Assembly (NCBI RefSeq): GCF_019634815.1
Contig: NZ_JAHCAP010000003.1
Span: forward strand, 1 to 64,000
DNA from: Dokdonella sp.
Lineage (GTDB): Bacteria > Pseudomonadota > Gammaproteobacteria > Xanthomonadales > Rhodanobacteraceae
DNA: 64,000 nucleotides
Direction of reading: 5' to 3'
Position numbers and translations under genes: made by a program. The number at the start of each line of letters is the position of its first letter. Within the stretch, counting starts at the first letter, position 1. Below are positions 119 to 5,905 of the stretch, in pieces. The notes below the pieces were generated by a model. It saw only the letters and a list, made by a program, of their open reading frames with translations. It was not told where the DNA came from and searched no databases.

Positions 119-3100
119 ATGAACACTAAATCGGCTCCTCTGCTAGCGAGTGTTTTGGCTTTTGTGTTCGGAAGTGTCGCAATTCACGCCCAATCCGATT
201 CGACCTGTCGGATTGATGGCGGGGATGCGGAATGTCGAAACGGCATAGGTACGCCGTGGTGGTGGTGGTGGCCAGGGCCTTATACCGATCCAGTTCACTC
301 AGATCCGTACTGCGTTAGCAACTCGCCTCCCTATCAGGAATCTCAACACTGCACCGAGGAGGATCAGACTTGGCAGGCCGTTACAGAAAACGTTCTCTCG
401 GGTGCGCCATACGCCTGCGCGCCTCCAGATCGAATTTTCCTTAATGAGGGCATTACCAAAAAGCTAGGAATCGATGCCAATGTAGGACGTTCCTATGATG
501 TCACGATTTGGTGGGATCCTTACGGAGGGCAGGCTGGAAGCCACTGCGATCCGATAGTGTTTCCAAATAGAATCTCGATCGGTCGTAGAGACGTATTTTG
601 CCCCGCTGGATATCATGAAGACTCACGGGGGCAGTATTGCTACGGGACGAAGAAGGAAGTATGTCCCGTCGGTAATCCGATTCAATGTGCTGACGGCCAA
701 AAAATACAGGCGGAGCTTGATCGTACCAATGTAGGTTCTGGGATAGAGTTTATTCGCTACTATTCCAGTTCTGGCTTTTATAATTCGCCCGGCACTTCGC
801 CAGAAGATGTGTTAGGACCGCATTGGCGCCACAGCTGGCAACGCAGTGTAGCTGTGGAATCCCCTGTTACCCAAGGGCAGACCACATTTGCGTACGTCGT
901 ACGTCCCGATGGGGATTATCGCCACTTCAGATGGAACGGTCAGACATGGGATGGCAGAAAGGACAAATCTGAAACATTGCAAGAGCTAACTAGCCAAGGA
1001 CAGCGGACCGGCTGGCGGTATACGGATGCGACCGATGGAGTAGAAAACTATGATGCTGCTGGTACGCTGTTATCAATTGTGTCTGTCTCAGGCAAAATCA
1101 TCACTCTAAGCTATAGCGATACATCAACGCCTCCGGAAATTGCCCCTAAACCTGGCCTACTAATTCGCGTCTCGGATCGTAGTGGTCGAGCGCTTGATCT
1201 ACACTACGATACAAATTCCTTGTTGAAGGAGACGGTAGGCTCCGATGGTCTTGTGCATACGTACACTTACGATACCTCTAGATTTTTGTCCGCTGTTCAT
1301 TTCGGAGACACGCAGCGGAAATACCTCTATGACGAGTCCGTATACTCGGAAGCTGGGGGCGCTCGCGGGCTGATGACCGGTCTTATCGATGAGAGCGATG
1401 TGCGTTATGCCACGTTCAATTACGATGCGCAAGGAAGGGCAACTCAGGAGTGGCACGGTGCAGATTCGGACCCGCTTAGTATCTTTTATGATCAAGCGGG
1501 ATCGATAGTTATCGATGCTATGGGCGCAGCATCAAGACGTCGTTTCATTACAATCAATGGCATCCTGCGTAATGCCGGGGTGGATCGCTGCAGCGATGCA
1601 ACGTGCGCAACTGCGGTCTCCAGCTCGTCAAGAACCTACGACGCCAACGGTAATCCCGACCGCGATACAGATTTCAATGGCGACATTACCGCTCACGGTT
1701 ACAACACGCGGGGACTGGAGACCATTCGTGTCGATGCGTCGAACGACCCATCGGCAGCGTCGACGTCGGCCAAAAGAACAACGGTAACGAGTTGGAATCC
1801 CAACTTCAACGTTCCCGATCAGCGCACGGTCAAGAACGCGAGTGGTGCGACCGAGTCCCTGACCAGATGGGCCTACAACACCCGGGGCCAGCCGACCGCG
1901 CGTTGCGAGGTCGATCCCGCCATTGGCAGCGCCACGAGTTATACCTGCGGCTCGGCCAAGAATGCTCCTGTCGGCGTCCGCCAGACCCGAACAACGTATT
2001 GCGAACAGCCCGACGTCAGCGCCGGCAGCTGTCCGCTGGTCGGCCTCGTCACTTCCGTCAACGGCCCGCGCGCGACGTCCGATGCTGGTACGGGTGGCTT
2101 TGACGACACGACCACCTACACCTACTACCAGACCGATGATCCGACCTGCGCCAGCGGTGGCGCCTGCCCGCACCGCCACGGCGACTTGTGGAAAGTCACC
2201 AACGCGCTCGGCCAGGTCACCGAAACGGTCAGCTATGACAAGAACGGCCGCGTCACGCGCTCGAAAGACGCCAACGGCACACTCACCGACTTCGCCTACC
2301 ACCCGCGCGGCTGGCTGACCGACCGCATCGTGCGCGCGAACGCGAACGGCACGCGCTCAGCCAATGACGCGACGCTGCACATCGACTACGACCCGGTCGG
2401 CAACGTCGTCAAGGTGACTCAGCCCGACGGCGACTATCTCGCCTACACCTACGACAACGCGCACCGCCTCATCAAGATCGCCGACAACCTCGCCAATACC
2501 ATCGACTACTGCCCCGGCGGCGTCGGCAGCGTGGAGTGTCTGGACGCGGCGGGCAATCGCCGCGTCGAGCAGGTCAAGGATGCGAGCGGCGCGATCAAGC
2601 GCCAACTGCACCGGGTCTACAACCAGCTCGGGCAGCTCACGCAGCAACTCAACGCCGCCAACGCCCCGGTCGAGTCGTCCATGGGTCTGAGCGAGAACTT
2701 CGCCGGTCAGCCCGCCGTTGCCGACGGCTACGACGGCAACGGCAACCGCGTGCTGTCCGACGACGGTCTGGGCACGCGAACCAAGCAGCAATACGACGGC
2801 CTCAACCGCCTCGTCGCGACGATCCAGAACTACAACGGACTCGACACCGCGACAGCCAACACGACCACGCACTACGCCTACGACACGCGTGACAACCTGC
2901 GCCAGGTTACCGACCCGGATGGCCTCAACACGGTCTACGACTACGACGGGCTGAACAACCTCACCGGCCTGCACAGCCCCGACACGGGTAACGCGAGCTA
3001 TACCTACGACAAAGCCGGCAATCGCATCACGCAGACCGACGCGCGCAACGTTACGAGCACCTACACCTACGACGCGCTCAACCGCCTGACCGCCATCGCG

Positions 3101-5044
3101 TATCCAGACAGCAGCCTCAACGTCGGCTATGCCTATGACCAGCCGGACGCGACCACGGGGTGCAGCGGGTCGTATCCGCGCGGCCGCCTCACGCGCATGA
3201 CCGACCCCACGGGCAGCACGACCTACTGCTACGACCGCCACGGCAACGTGACGAAGAAGACGCAGTTCGGCACCCGGATCGTCTCGTGTCTGAACGGCAC
3301 GTCCGGCTGCGGCGGCGACGCGTCCAGCTTTGCCGCGGGCCTCGGCGTGGAAGTGGGCGGCATCGCCAATCCGACCAAGTCCACGACGATCACCCTCGTC
3401 ACCGCGATGGCCTACACGAAAGGCGACCGCATCCAGAGCATCACCTACCCGAGCGGCGCGATCATCAGCTATGGCCGCGACCCGCTCGGCCGCATCACCT
3501 CGGTGCAGTACAAGGCAAATGCCAATGCCACCGCGGTCAAGCTGATCGGCAGCGCGACGTATTACCCGTTCGGCCCGCTGCACACGCTGACTTGGGGCAA
3601 CGGCCGCACGCTGACCAAGACCTACGACGCCGACTACGCGATCGACTCGGTTCAAGCCACACCGACCGGCCTCACGCTCGATGCGATCACGGACGTGATG
3701 GGCAACGTCACTGCCTTGAGCCAGACGCTGAGTCCCGCCGCGCCCGATCGCAGCTATCAATACGATCCGCTCTACCGTCTGAGCAAAGCCAATGCCGGCG
3801 CGACGACGCGCGAGAGCTATACCTACAGCCCCACCGGCGATCGCACCAGCGCCACCGTCAACGGCGCGACGCAGGCCTACACCTACACCGCCGGCACGCA
3901 CCACCTCGCCAGTGTCGGCGCCACCGCCCGCAGCTACGACGCCAACGGCAACACCACCAGCAACAACCTGGCCTACGACCAGCGCAACCGGCTCGCCGGC
4001 TGGAAGCTGCAAGGCGGCCAGATCGGCCTCGGTGGCGACTCGGCCCGATACGGCTACAACGGCAAGGGCGAGCGCACGGTCAAGCAGGTGACGTACAACG
4101 ACCATTGCCTCGCGCCTGCCTGCTATCCCGGCCCCGGCGCGCCCACCGGCTGGCTCACGGGCACCGCAGCCTTCGCCTACGACGAAGCCGGGCACCTGAT
4201 CGGCGAATATCCCAGCCTCTACGGCCCCGGCAGGAACACCGAATACATCTATCTCGACAGCACGCCGATCGCGGCGATCCGCAGCGGCCAGCTCCACGAG
4301 ATCGAAACCGATCACCTGGGCACCCCGCGCGCGGTCGTCAGGCCTGGAACCACGCCCAGTGCAGACGTGACGGTGTGGCGCTGGGACTTGCTTGGCAACA
4401 CCTTCGGAGCGGACGCCCCGAATGAAGATGCCGATGGCGACGGCACCGCCTTCGCCTTCAGCCTGCGATATCCCGGTCAGTACCAAGATGCCGAGACTGG
4501 CCTCAACTACAACTACTTCAGGGATTATGAGCCGGGGACCGGACGCTATGCCGAAAGTGATCCCACTGGGTTGGGCGGAGGTATAAACACATACGCTTAC
4601 TCATTCAGTAGGCCTGGTACTTTCTTTGATCGCCAGGGTAACATTCCGCAGCCTGGATTCCAGATACCGCCAAATTATCCAAATCCAACTATTGTGTGCG
4701 ATGGAAATGGTGGTATTGAACCATATTTGACTCCGCTTTCTCCTTTCGACTTGGCGTGCTTTGGCGACTGCGTTCATCAGCATGAAATGATACACATTCG
4801 CGATTTTTCGAGAGCGAATCCAGTCGTTTGTCATGGTCAAATACGTGGGACAATGGTTAATGAGTTTGATAATCTATCGCTTTGGCAAACTGAAGCAAAC
4901 GCGTGGAAGGCCGAATTACAGTGTCTCGAAAAACGACTTGAAGAAGAGAAGAAAAGTGATTGTCCTGCATGCAAACTCCGTCTTGAGACTGAGATTGCTC
5001 ACGCTCAAGACATGGTCAATCGCTATACATATGCGATAAGGTAG
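119..5044 (+). CDS. Secreted RHS/YD-repeat protein with metallopeptidase-like C-terminal tip
   Basis: This is a polymorphic-toxin-like RHS protein of 1641 residues. It begins with a signal peptide (hydrophobic residues about 5-24, ending near AHA), then a W-rich stretch near residues 45-49. A DUF6531-like entry motif (GNPIQCADGQKIQ) lies near residue 190, followed by YD repeats from about 310 to 1470. The RHS core closes with GRYAESDPTGL (D1481). The tip after it, about 155 residues, contains H1555-E1556-M-I-H1559, an HExxH zinc-peptidase signature, followed by acidic residues E1592 and E1599 and several cysteines. The repeat core (about 1620-4560) is GC-rich, whereas the N-terminal third and the tip are visibly AT-richer, so the gene looks mosaic. 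An AGGA ribosome site precedes the ATG. The RHS class is certain; the peptidase role is inferred. Confidence 0.93.
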   Translation: MNTKSAPLLASVLAFVFGSVAIHAQSDSTCRIDGGDAECRNGIGTPWWWWWPGPYTDPVHSDPYCVSNSPPYQESQHCTEEDQTWQAVTENVLSGAPYACAPPDRIFLNEGITKKLGIDANVGRSYDVTIWWDPYGGQAGSHCDPIVFPNRISIGRRDVFCPAGYHEDSRGQYCYGTKKEVCPVGNPIQCADGQKIQAELDRTNVGSGIEFIRYYSSSGFYNSPGTSPEDVLGPHWRHSWQRSVAVESPVTQGQTTFAYVVRPDGDYRHFRWNGQTWDGRKDKSETLQELTSQGQRTGWRYTDATDGVENYDAAGTLLSIVSVSGKIITLSYSDTSTPPEIAPKPGLLIRVSDRSGRALDLHYDTNSLLKETVGSDGLVHTYTYDTSRFLSAVHFGDTQRKYLYDESVYSEAGGARGLMTGLIDESDVRYATFNYDAQGRATQEWHGADSDPLSIFYDQAGSIVIDAMGAASRRRFITINGILRNAGVDRCSDATCATAVSSSSRTYDANGNPDRDTDFNGDITAHGYNTRGLETIRVDASNDPSAASTSAKRTTVTSWNPNFNVPDQRTVKNASGATESLTRWAYNTRGQPTARCEVDPAIGSATSYTCGSAKNAPVGVRQTRTTYCEQPDVSAGSCPLVGLVTSVNGPRATSDAGTGGFDDTTTYTYYQTDDPTCASGGACPHRHGDLWKVTNALGQVTETVSYDKNGRVTRSKDANGTLTDFAYHPRGWLTDRIVRANANGTRSANDATLHIDYDPVGNVVKVTQPDGDYLAYTYDNAHRLIKIADNLANTIDYCPGGVGSVECLDAAGNRRVEQVKDASGAIKRQLHRVYNQLGQLTQQLNAANAPVESSMGLSENFAGQPAVADGYDGNGNRVLSDDGLGTRTKQQYDGLNRLVATIQNYNGLDTATANTTTHYAYDTRDNLRQVTDPDGLNTVYDYDGLNNLTGLHSPDTGNASYTYDKAGNRITQTDARNVTSTYTYDALNRLTAIAYPDSSLNVGYAYDQPDATTGCSGSYPRGRLTRMTDPTGSTTYCYDRHGNVTKKTQFGTRIVSCLNGTSGCGGDASSFAAGLGVEVGGIANPTKSTTITLVTAMAYTKGDRIQSITYPSGAIISYGRDPLGRITSVQYKANANATAVKLIGSATYYPFGPLHTLTWGNGRTLTKTYDADYAIDSVQATPTGLTLDAITDVMGNVTALSQTLSPAAPDRSYQYDPLYRLSKANAGATTRESYTYSPTGDRTSATVNGATQAYTYTAGTHHLASVGATARSYDANGNTTSNNLAYDQRNRLAGWKLQGGQIGLGGDSARYGYNGKGERTVKQVTYNDHCLAPACYPGPGAPTGWLTGTAAFAYDEAGHLIGEYPSLYGPGRNTEYIYLDSTPIAAIRSGQLHEIETDHLGTPRAVVRPGTTPSADVTVWRWDLLGNTFGADAPNEDADGDGTAFAFSLRYPGQYQDAETGLNYNYFRDYEPGTGRYAESDPTGLGGGINTYAYSFSRPGTFFDRQGNIPQPGFQIPPNYPNPTIVCDGNGGIEPYLTPLSPFDLACFGDCVHQHEMIHIRDFSRANPVVCHGQIRGTMVNEFDNLSLWQTEANAWKAELQCLEKRLEEEKKSDCPACKLRLETEIAHAQDMVNRYTYAIR

Positions 5045-5050
5045 GTTGCG

Positions 5051-5515
5051 ATGATAAAGAGTGTCGCACTAACGCTTGCGTTTATTTATCCGATTTCATT
5101 GAGTGCGGCGGACCTTGGTGTAACCGCATGCGTCGCTATTGATGGTGATAGTCCAGCATTGCACTTCGAAATTCAAAACAAAACGGCAAGCAGCATTTCT
5201 ATCCCGAGTAGCAACTTTCCTTGGCGTGAGGATGGGGCAATCGTTATTGCATATCGAGGTGACGCGCTTATTGGCAAGGTTATGAATCGCGCTTATCAAA
5301 TACAAGATAGTGTCTCTGGCAATGTTGTATTGCGTAGCGGTGAGAAACAAGCCGGCGAGTTGGTTTTGAAATATCTGTATCCTGAAATTGTTAAACTCGA
5401 TGATCGATCTTCGGTCACGATTCTTTGGGCTTACACGCCACGAGGGTACGCTGCAAAAGATATAACGCTCGGCGGTGCGCTAACGCTGCGCGATAAAGAT
5501 CGGTGTACGAATTGA
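5051..5515 (+). CDS. Small exported protein, candidate immunity protein for the RHS tip
   Basis: I do not recognise a family for this 154-residue protein. It starts with a clear Sec signal peptide (MIKS, a hydrophobic run, then SLSAAD), so the mature protein should be periplasmic. It contains C27 and a C-terminal cysteine (RCTN). It starts 6 bp after the RHS stop on the same strand and shares the low GC of the RHS tip, which suggests that tip and small gene were acquired as a unit. Immunity genes of RHS and CDI toxins commonly sit exactly here. A periplasmic location would fit a toxin that acts in the periplasm. The immunity role is inference from position. Confidence 0.7.
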   Translation: MIKSVALTLAFIYPISLSAADLGVTACVAIDGDSPALHFEIQNKTASSISIPSSNFPWREDGAIVIAYRGDALIGKVMNRAYQIQDSVSGNVVLRSGEKQAGELVLKYLYPEIVKLDDRSSVTILWAYTPRGYAAKDITLGGALTLRDKDRCTN

Positions 5516-5664: not shown

Positions 5665-5905
5665 TGCCTGCCCGCACCGCCGAAAGTCGCCAACGCGATC
5701 GGCCAAATCACCGAAACCGTCAGCTACGATAGGCATGGCTGCGTCCGCGCTCGAAGAGGTCAACGACACGCCCACCGACGTCGCCTGTCACCCGTATGGC
5801 TGGCTGACAGACCGCATGGTGCGAGCGCACGTGAGCGGTAGCGCGGCGACCAACCACGCCACGCCGCACATCGACTACGATCCGCTGGGCGCGTGGGAAA
5901 CGTGA
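5665..5905 (+). pseudogene. Decayed duplicate of an RHS core segment
   Basis: This stretch is recognisably homologous to about 2169-2402 of the RHS gene upstream. Matching blocks include the segment encoding ITETVSYD, the HPYGWLTDRMVRA block and the block encoding HIDYDPLG, all with many substitutions. Small indels have shifted the frame, so different blocks are readable in different frames, and nothing upstream supplies a start. It is best read as the remnant of an older RHS copy or displaced cassette, left after recombination in the core. The 150 bp between the putative immunity gene and this block (5516-5664) shows no gene. Confidence 0.75.

What the first reader, a model, noticed from the sequence alone, without database searches (positions are those of the whole stretch)
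119..5515. RHS protein with HExxH tip and an exported candidate immunity protein
The tip of the RHS protein carries H1555-E-M-I-H1559 and cysteines, and has different base composition from the core. It is followed, 6 bp on, by a small AT-rich gene with a signal peptide. The pair looks like a toxin/immunity cassette in which the immunity protein acts in the periplasm. The unit may be a previously undescribed metallopeptidase toxin.
Basis: partly seen in the sequence, partly recalled or inferred. Interest (0 to 1): 0.7.

Follow-up and report, generated by a model that had tools for sequence, protein, structure and literature searches.

The report
RHS zinc-peptidase-like toxin with exported immunity
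This looks like a weapon bacteria use against each other: a large secreted protein whose tip resembles a small zinc-dependent protein cutter, followed by a gene for an exported partner shaped like a protease inhibitor that probably protects the producer; both protein families match no known family we searched.

Summary
In detail: a 1641-aa RHS protein (signal peptide, DUF6531, YD repeats, RHS core) ends in a low-GC tip (1508-1641) with H1555-EMI-H1559, and a 154-aa exported protein starts 6 bp later. Neither tip nor partner matches Pfam, NCBIfam, PHROGs or the PDB by sequence.

Relatives make it a real family. Of 22 tip loci found in the family and order, all 22 are followed by a small gene with a signal-like start (15 of 53 control genes). 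HExxH and a second glutamate (E1592, ExxA) are invariant in 18 of 18 tips that reach the motif. Tips nearest the window's pair with the window's partner family; more distant tips pair with other exported proteins.

AlphaFold2 gives a confident tip (pLDDT 88.9), but fold searches return helical bundles, so a zincin fold is not shown. The partner's best fold matches are the N-terminal part of the AsaP1 metalloprotease and the BsuPI proteinase inhibitor; general Ig-like domains score nearly as high.

The genome has no T6SS sheath or PAAR hit but has GspD, so delivery probably resembles the T2SS-dependent RHS bacteriocin Bcn-A. Orphan partner genes exist.

Verdict: two new families within a known kind of system; peptidase activity likely, unproven.

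The parts
119..5044 (+). RHS polymorphic-toxin gene, 1641 aa
   Evidence: DUF6531 185-268, RHS repeats, Rhs_assc_core 1440-1507; ORF
119..190 (+). Sec-type signal peptide of the RHS protein (MNTKSAPLLASVLAFVFGSVAIHA)
   Evidence: read by eye; no signal predictor available
4559..4573 (+). first DPxGL motif (DPTGL, residue 1481)
   Evidence: motif described in PMC8636562 (passages)
4628..4642 (+). second, degenerate autocleavage motif D1504-RQGN (canonical PxxxxDPxGL); inferred cleavage at the start of the tip
   Evidence: PMC8636562 passages; cleavage itself is inferred
4640..5041 (+). C-terminal tip, residues 1508-1641, candidate zinc-peptidase toxin domain
   Evidence: low GC, family alignments, AlphaFold2 model pLDDT 88.9
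4781..4795 (+). HEMIH (H1555-H1559), candidate metal ligands and general base
   Evidence: invariant HExxH in 18 of 18 tips
4892..4894 (+). E1592 of the ExxA motif, candidate third metal ligand
   Evidence: invariant in 18 of 18 tips; on the helix after the HExxH helix in the model; ligand role inferred
5051..5515 (+). exported candidate immunity protein, 154 aa, predicted Ig-like beta-sandwich
5051..5107 (+). signal peptide of the candidate immunity protein
   Evidence: hydrophobic N-terminus; cleavage site by eye
5682..5884 (+). decayed RHS-core relic (80% identical over 206 bp to the core of the gene upstream)
   Evidence: blastn E 1e-39 and two frames by tblastn

Best explanation
An RHS polymorphic toxin with its immunity gene, aimed at the cell envelope. 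The RHS protein is exported by Sec and probably leaves through a type II system; the YD shell carries the tip (1508-1641), which is probably released by aspartyl autocleavage near D1504. The tip is a small disulphide-rich domain that probably binds one zinc through H1555, H1559 and E1592, uses E1556 as base and cuts envelope proteins of a rival. The producer is protected by its exported 154-aa partner, an Ig-like protein that probably blocks the tip in the periplasm. Shown by computation: gene structure, family conservation, partner co-variation, partner fold class. Inferred: signal peptides, secretion route, cleavage, metal binding, peptidase activity, target and neutralisation.
For: RHS architecture. 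Tip and partner differ from the core in GC and GC3. Tip relatives in 15 of 233 genomes of the family and in 5 more genomes of 250 of the order; all 22 tip loci have a signal-like small ORF next door, 15 of 53 controls do. HExxH and the ExxA glutamate 18 of 18, C64-equivalent 18 of 18, other cysteines 15 to 17 of 18. Partner type clusters on the tip tree: 2 changes against 6.2 by shuffling, reached by 0 of 500 shuffles. Tip model pLDDT 88.9, HExxH helix followed by the glutamate helix. Partner fold: AsaP1 residues 23-150 Z 9.1 (rmsd 3.6, 111 aligned), BsuPI 3isy Z 8.0 (rmsd 3.9, 115 of 117); AsaP1 is a zinc metalloendopeptidase known for propeptide inhibition (title of a paper in a reference list). 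The BsuPI guess was noted before the fold was run. No VipB or PAAR hit, two GspD over cut-off in the genome. Precedents: VgrG2b/PA0261, Bcn-A.
Against: No zincin among the listed fold matches of the tip; best Foldseek E 0.021, to ferritin-like proteins. No sequence match to any metallopeptidase family. The partner's Ig-like fold is common: transglutaminase domains score Z 7.7, and IPI/BsuPI itself was reported ineffective against metallopeptidases. Partner homologues without tips exist. The fused model has pTM 0.53, so no interface can be read from it.
Confidence: 0.62

Rival explanations
1. The pair is a toxin/immunity cassette, but the tip is a metal-dependent enzyme of another kind (for example a helical-bundle hydrolase or oxidase) whose HExxH-E site is not a peptidase site.
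For: All listed fold matches are helical bundles, many of them diiron ferritin-like proteins. The model has only a two-stranded hairpin and three long helices.
Against: One HExxH plus one glutamate on the next helix is a mononuclear gluzincin arrangement (recalled); diiron proteins need more carboxylates, and only E1556 and E1592 are invariant. The partner's top fold matches are peptidase-linked.
Confidence: 0.2
2. The small gene is a dedicated chaperone or secretion partner of the RHS protein and not an immunity protein.
For: It overlaps or abuts the rhs stop codon and is exported.
Against: It changes with the tip and not with the core, and it persists behind damaged tips (G416, G550, G545) and where no RHS core is left, as immunity genes do.
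Confidence: 0.08
3. The cassette is a remnant and not functional in this genome.
For: A decayed RHS-core relic lies directly downstream, and relatives in G416, G550 and G545 are frameshifted or truncated.
Against: Both window genes are intact with every family-invariant residue present.
Confidence: 0.1

Closest known systems
VgrG2b C-terminal domain / PA0261 of Pseudomonas aeruginosa (PMC6899460; abstract and sections 9, 10, 12 read)
   Same: C-terminal HExxH domain on a large carrier, glutamate as further ligand, acts in the periplasm, immunity protein exported, small immunity ORF directly downstream, cysteines matter
   Different: Carrier is VgrG with T6SS; domain is DUF4157-like and about 190 aa with more helices; our tip has no DUF4157 hit and the genome has no VipB or PAAR hit
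Bcn-A RHS bacteriocin of Xanthomonas perforans (PMC7259588; passages read)
   Same: RHS protein, activity lost in a T2SS (xpsD) mutant, downstream immunity gene, same order of bacteria (recalled)
   Different: Three accessory ORFs lie between toxin and immunity gene; its immunity protein was predicted in the inner membrane; its tip was not described as a metallopeptidase in the passages read
Tox-MPTase1-5, PVC-metallopeptidase and HopH1-like toxin domains (PMC3482391; passages read)
   Same: Small HExxH domains at the C-terminus of RHS proteins
   Different: No immunity protein is listed for Tox-MPTase1-5 or PVC-metallopeptidase in the table passages read; our tips hit no Pfam model
BsuPI/IPI proteinase inhibitor (3isy; PMC3901451 passages read) and AsaP1 (2x3a-c; propeptide inhibition known from a title only)
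   Same: Ig-like beta-sandwich of the partner: Z 8.0 to 3isy, Z 9.1 to residues 23-150 of AsaP1
   Different: No sequence similarity found; IPI acts on subtilisins and was reported ineffective on metallopeptidases

Membership tests
RHS polymorphic toxins | YD/RHS repeats and RHS-associated core before a variable C-terminus | tested here: met
RHS polymorphic toxins | C-terminal tip of different composition with a partner gene next to it | tested here: met
RHS polymorphic toxins | two DPxGL-type motifs before the tip (autocleavage) | tested here: inconclusive
   first motif intact, second is DRQGN; Asp retained
T6SS-delivered RHS effectors | T6SS sheath gene and PAAR domain in the genome | tested here: not met
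   no VipB and no PAAR match in a 60-contig assembly; VgrG was not searched
VgrG2b-type (DUF4157) metallopeptidase effectors | HExxH | tested here: met
VgrG2b-type (DUF4157) metallopeptidase effectors | match to the DUF4157 or another metallopeptidase Pfam model | tested here: not met
MA(E) gluzincins | zincin fold | tested here: inconclusive
   confident model, no zincin in the listed matches
MA(E) gluzincins | HExxH plus a downstream glutamate ligand | tested here: inconclusive
Tox-MPTase1-5 | match to their profiles | tested here: inconclusive
   no Pfam match; whether all five are in Pfam was not checked
BsuPI family (PF12690) | sequence match to the profile | tested here: not met
   no match of any of 8 members up to E 10
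BsuPI fold | Ig-like beta-sandwich covering most of the domain | tested here: met
   Z 8.0, 115 of 117 residues aligned; other Ig-like domains score close
Immunity proteins of periplasmic toxins | neutralises the toxin by binding | not testable with these tools
   no co-folding with interface scores; fused model pTM 0.53

The most novel reading that the evidence does not exclude
The pair works as a split zymogen: the immunity protein is a propeptide-like Ig inhibitor, of the kind that silences AsaP1, acting in trans in the periplasm. It belongs to a T6SS-independent class of secreted RHS weapons of Dyella and its relatives that arm themselves with a superfamily of small HExxH tips and swap exported inhibitors of several unrelated folds.
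Probability: 0.22. Interest if true: 0.75.

Novelty: new variant of a known kind. Interest (0 to 1): 0.52.

Why it matters
If true it adds a compact, unclassified family of envelope-acting RHS toxins that do not depend on a type VI system, together with an immunity family that resembles peptidase inhibitors. The pairs give a set of natural, specific inhibitor-target couples, and make it testable how a Sec-exported RHS shell delivers a protease into a rival's periplasm.

Tried and rejected
Single-sequence search of 398 genomes of the phylum gave one outside hit at E 0.0054 (L003); its region is no RHS tip and I dropped it. A1 over 369 genomes of the class hit only the window's own genome, so the tip family looks concentrated in the order. 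No match in plasmids (single sequence) or viral contigs. PADLOC and PHROGs gave nothing.

Fold searches of the tip: best Foldseek E 0.021 (ferritin-like), best VIA Z 7.2 (a de novo protein); no metallopeptidase is among the 50 rows shown of either, or of the viral library. I do not take this as evidence of a new fold. I considered that the second partner family (alignment A7: L009, L011, L012, L058, L060) might be PepSY-like, but found no support and dropped it.

The tip tree has long branches and one starred branch of 15, so I use it only for clustering of partner type, not for branching order. The control uses genes from the window and five loci, so controls and tips are not matched one to one, and the 22 tip loci are related to each other. 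The best of several candidate ORFs was taken in both groups. For L057 the ORF chosen by the rule is one frame of a frameshifted partner gene.

Rows set aside: the 4 of 22 tip loci whose ORF does not reach HExxH (L013, L057, L058, L060) are left out of the 18-row alignment; 8 of the 23 partner-family places lie above E 1e-20 and are left out of the count of 15 (one of them, L036, sits behind a variant HExxH tip).

Full report
What is there. The window begins at the first base of contig C23 of a 3.24 Mb, 60-contig genome. Gene 119-5044 encodes 1641 aa with a Sec-type start, DUF6531 (185-268), RHS repeats and the RHS-associated core domain (1440-1507). After a first DPTGL motif (1481) and a degenerate second motif, D1504-RQGN, the tip runs from 1508 to 1641. 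The passages read of PMC8636562 place C-terminal aspartyl autocleavage at two DPLGL motifs 17 residues apart, with the catalytic Asp in the second; here that Asp is kept but the motif is not, so cleavage is inferred. The tip has GC 0.443 and GC3 0.373 against 0.648 and 0.823 in the core; the small gene has 0.465 and 0.409. The small gene (5051-5515) starts 6 bp after the stop.

Family libraries. The tip and the small protein match nothing convincing in Pfam, NCBIfam, PHROGs, PADLOC or PDB sequences. Six further distant tips also had no Pfam match of note.

Relatives of the tip. One-sequence search found matches in 11 of 233 genomes of the family; the profile A1 found 17 places in 15 of 233, and in the order 7 of 250 genomes, 5 of them new. 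In the class (369 genomes drawn) only the window's own genome matched. The named records found by the one genome-contig scan are three Dyella genomes and two MAG contigs; the family is therefore probably Rhodanobacteraceae (recalled). An 18-row alignment of the tips that reach the motif has HExxH 18 of 18, the glutamate equivalent to E1592 18 of 18, the alanine of ExxA 17 of 18, one cysteine 18 of 18 and four more cysteines 15 to 17 of 18. The rows were found with a profile that already holds HExxH, so the invariance is not independent of the search; but identity to the window row is only 24 to 56% in A1.

Partner genes. At all 22 tip loci a small ORF with a hydrophobic N-terminus starts between -65 and +103 bp of the tip's stop. 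By the same rule 15 of 53 other long genes have such a neighbour. At 10 of 22 loci the partner belongs to the window's family (alignment A2; strong at 9, weak at L056); 5 have another, mutually related exported family (L009, L011, L012, L058, L060), and 7 have exported proteins without convincing relatives in the set. On the tip tree the two partner labels need 2 changes against 6.2 on average when shuffled; 0 of 500 shuffles were as low for the A2 label and 1 of 500 for the other. Branches are long and mostly weakly supported, so this shows clustering only.

Orphans. Profile A2 found 23 places in 22 of 233 genomes. Of the 15 at E <= 1e-20, 9 lie directly behind a tip or a tip remnant (L016-L020, L022-L024, L029), one behind a tipless RHS end (L021) and 5 (L025, L026, L027, L028, L038) away from any RHS core (about 6 to 8 kb searched on each side). 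Two weaker places looked at (L079, L080) also lacked RHS. Orphan immunity genes would look like this; so would a small cellular family from which an immunity gene was recruited.

Structure. With six sequences AlphaFold2 gave the tip mean pLDDT 88.9 and pTM 0.81: two short strands (17-20, 26-29 of the tip), a helix 35-59 that holds HEMIH (48-52), a helix 78-103 that holds E85 (=E1592) and a helix 109-133. PDB and viral Foldseek searches gave no match at E <= 0.001; listed matches are ferritin-like and other helical bundles. So the arrangement of helices fits HExxH-plus-glutamate, but a zincin fold is not demonstrated, and I had no coordinates to measure the site.

For the partner I folded tip and partner as one chain by reading the in-frame TAG between the genes as Q. 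The partner part is an all-beta sandwich with 40-90 pLDDT; pTM 0.53 means the mutual placement is not to be read. Its best fold matches are AsaP1 (2x3b, residues 23-150, Z 9.1, rmsd 3.6, 111 aligned) and the B. subtilis proteinase inhibitor BsuPI/IPI (3isy, Z 8.0, rmsd 3.9, 115 aligned of 117), followed by transglutaminase Ig-like domains at Z 7.7 and below; Foldseek agrees (2x3c 1.1e-4, 3isy 1.2e-4). The inactivating mutations in those AsaP1 entries are at E294, far from residues 23-150, and a paper title reports intramolecular propeptide inhibition of AsaP1 (seen in a reference list only); that residues 23-150 are the propeptide is therefore an inference. I had written the BsuPI guess into the notebook before folding. 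[quoted passage not shown]

Delivery. The genome has no match to VipB or PAAR, and two GspD genes over the cut-off. The RHS protein has a Sec-type start, as does the complete homologue in Dyella sp. SG609 (by eye). In X. perforans the RHS bacteriocin Bcn-A lost activity in an xpsD mutant and has a downstream immunity gene (passages). A Sec/T2SS route exposes the producer's own periplasm to the toxin, which is why an exported immunity protein makes sense. The route is inferred.

Comparison. VgrG2b/PA0261 is the nearest tested analogue: a C-terminal HExxH gluzincin with a third glutamate ligand, toxic in the periplasm, neutralised by an exported immunity protein (PMC6899460; abstract and sections 9, 10, 12). 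Zhang et al. 2012 describe five small Tox-MPTase families and others on RHS proteins (PMC3482391 passages). So the kind is known; the tip family, the partner family and the likely T6SS-independent route are the new points. Searches of the paper library for RHS metallopeptidase tips showed no description of this family in the listings; subscription journals and preprints are mostly not held.

Scores. Toxin/immunity cassette: about 0.9. Partner periplasmic: about 0.85. Tip a zinc peptidase: about 0.7. Partner a direct, inhibitor-like blocker: about 0.4. These are judgements.

Noticed in passing
window 5682-5884: Decayed piece of an RHS core, 80% identical over 206 bp to the core of the gene upstream: a relic of an older RHS copy or rearrangement.
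   Followed up: partly
window 119-1500: The N-terminal third of the RHS gene has GC 0.515 and GC3 0.487, far below the core (0.648, 0.823), so the gene is a three-part mosaic and not only a core with a foreign tip.
   Followed up: no
L040 1-6893: Dyella tabacisoli carries an RHS gene followed by what look like three successive tip plus exported-small-gene cassettes, the last one of the window's type.
   Followed up: partly
L009, L011, L012, L058, L060: A second exported partner family (HWIVxxDxxSGxxxIxxG) goes with more distant HExxH tips; no Pfam or PDB match.
   Followed up: partly
L010, L013, L057: Related cassettes with frameshifted or truncated tips still keep the partner gene (in L057 itself frameshifted).
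   Followed up: partly
L056 994-2405: A tip with HENTH and a cysteine-poor 'TIVTDGKGGI' start, with a diverged partner of the window's family, may link this family to a wider set of RHS tips.
   Followed up: no
L067, L068 (own genome, contig C21): Two further RHS ends in the same genome with other, unrelated tips.
   Followed up: partly
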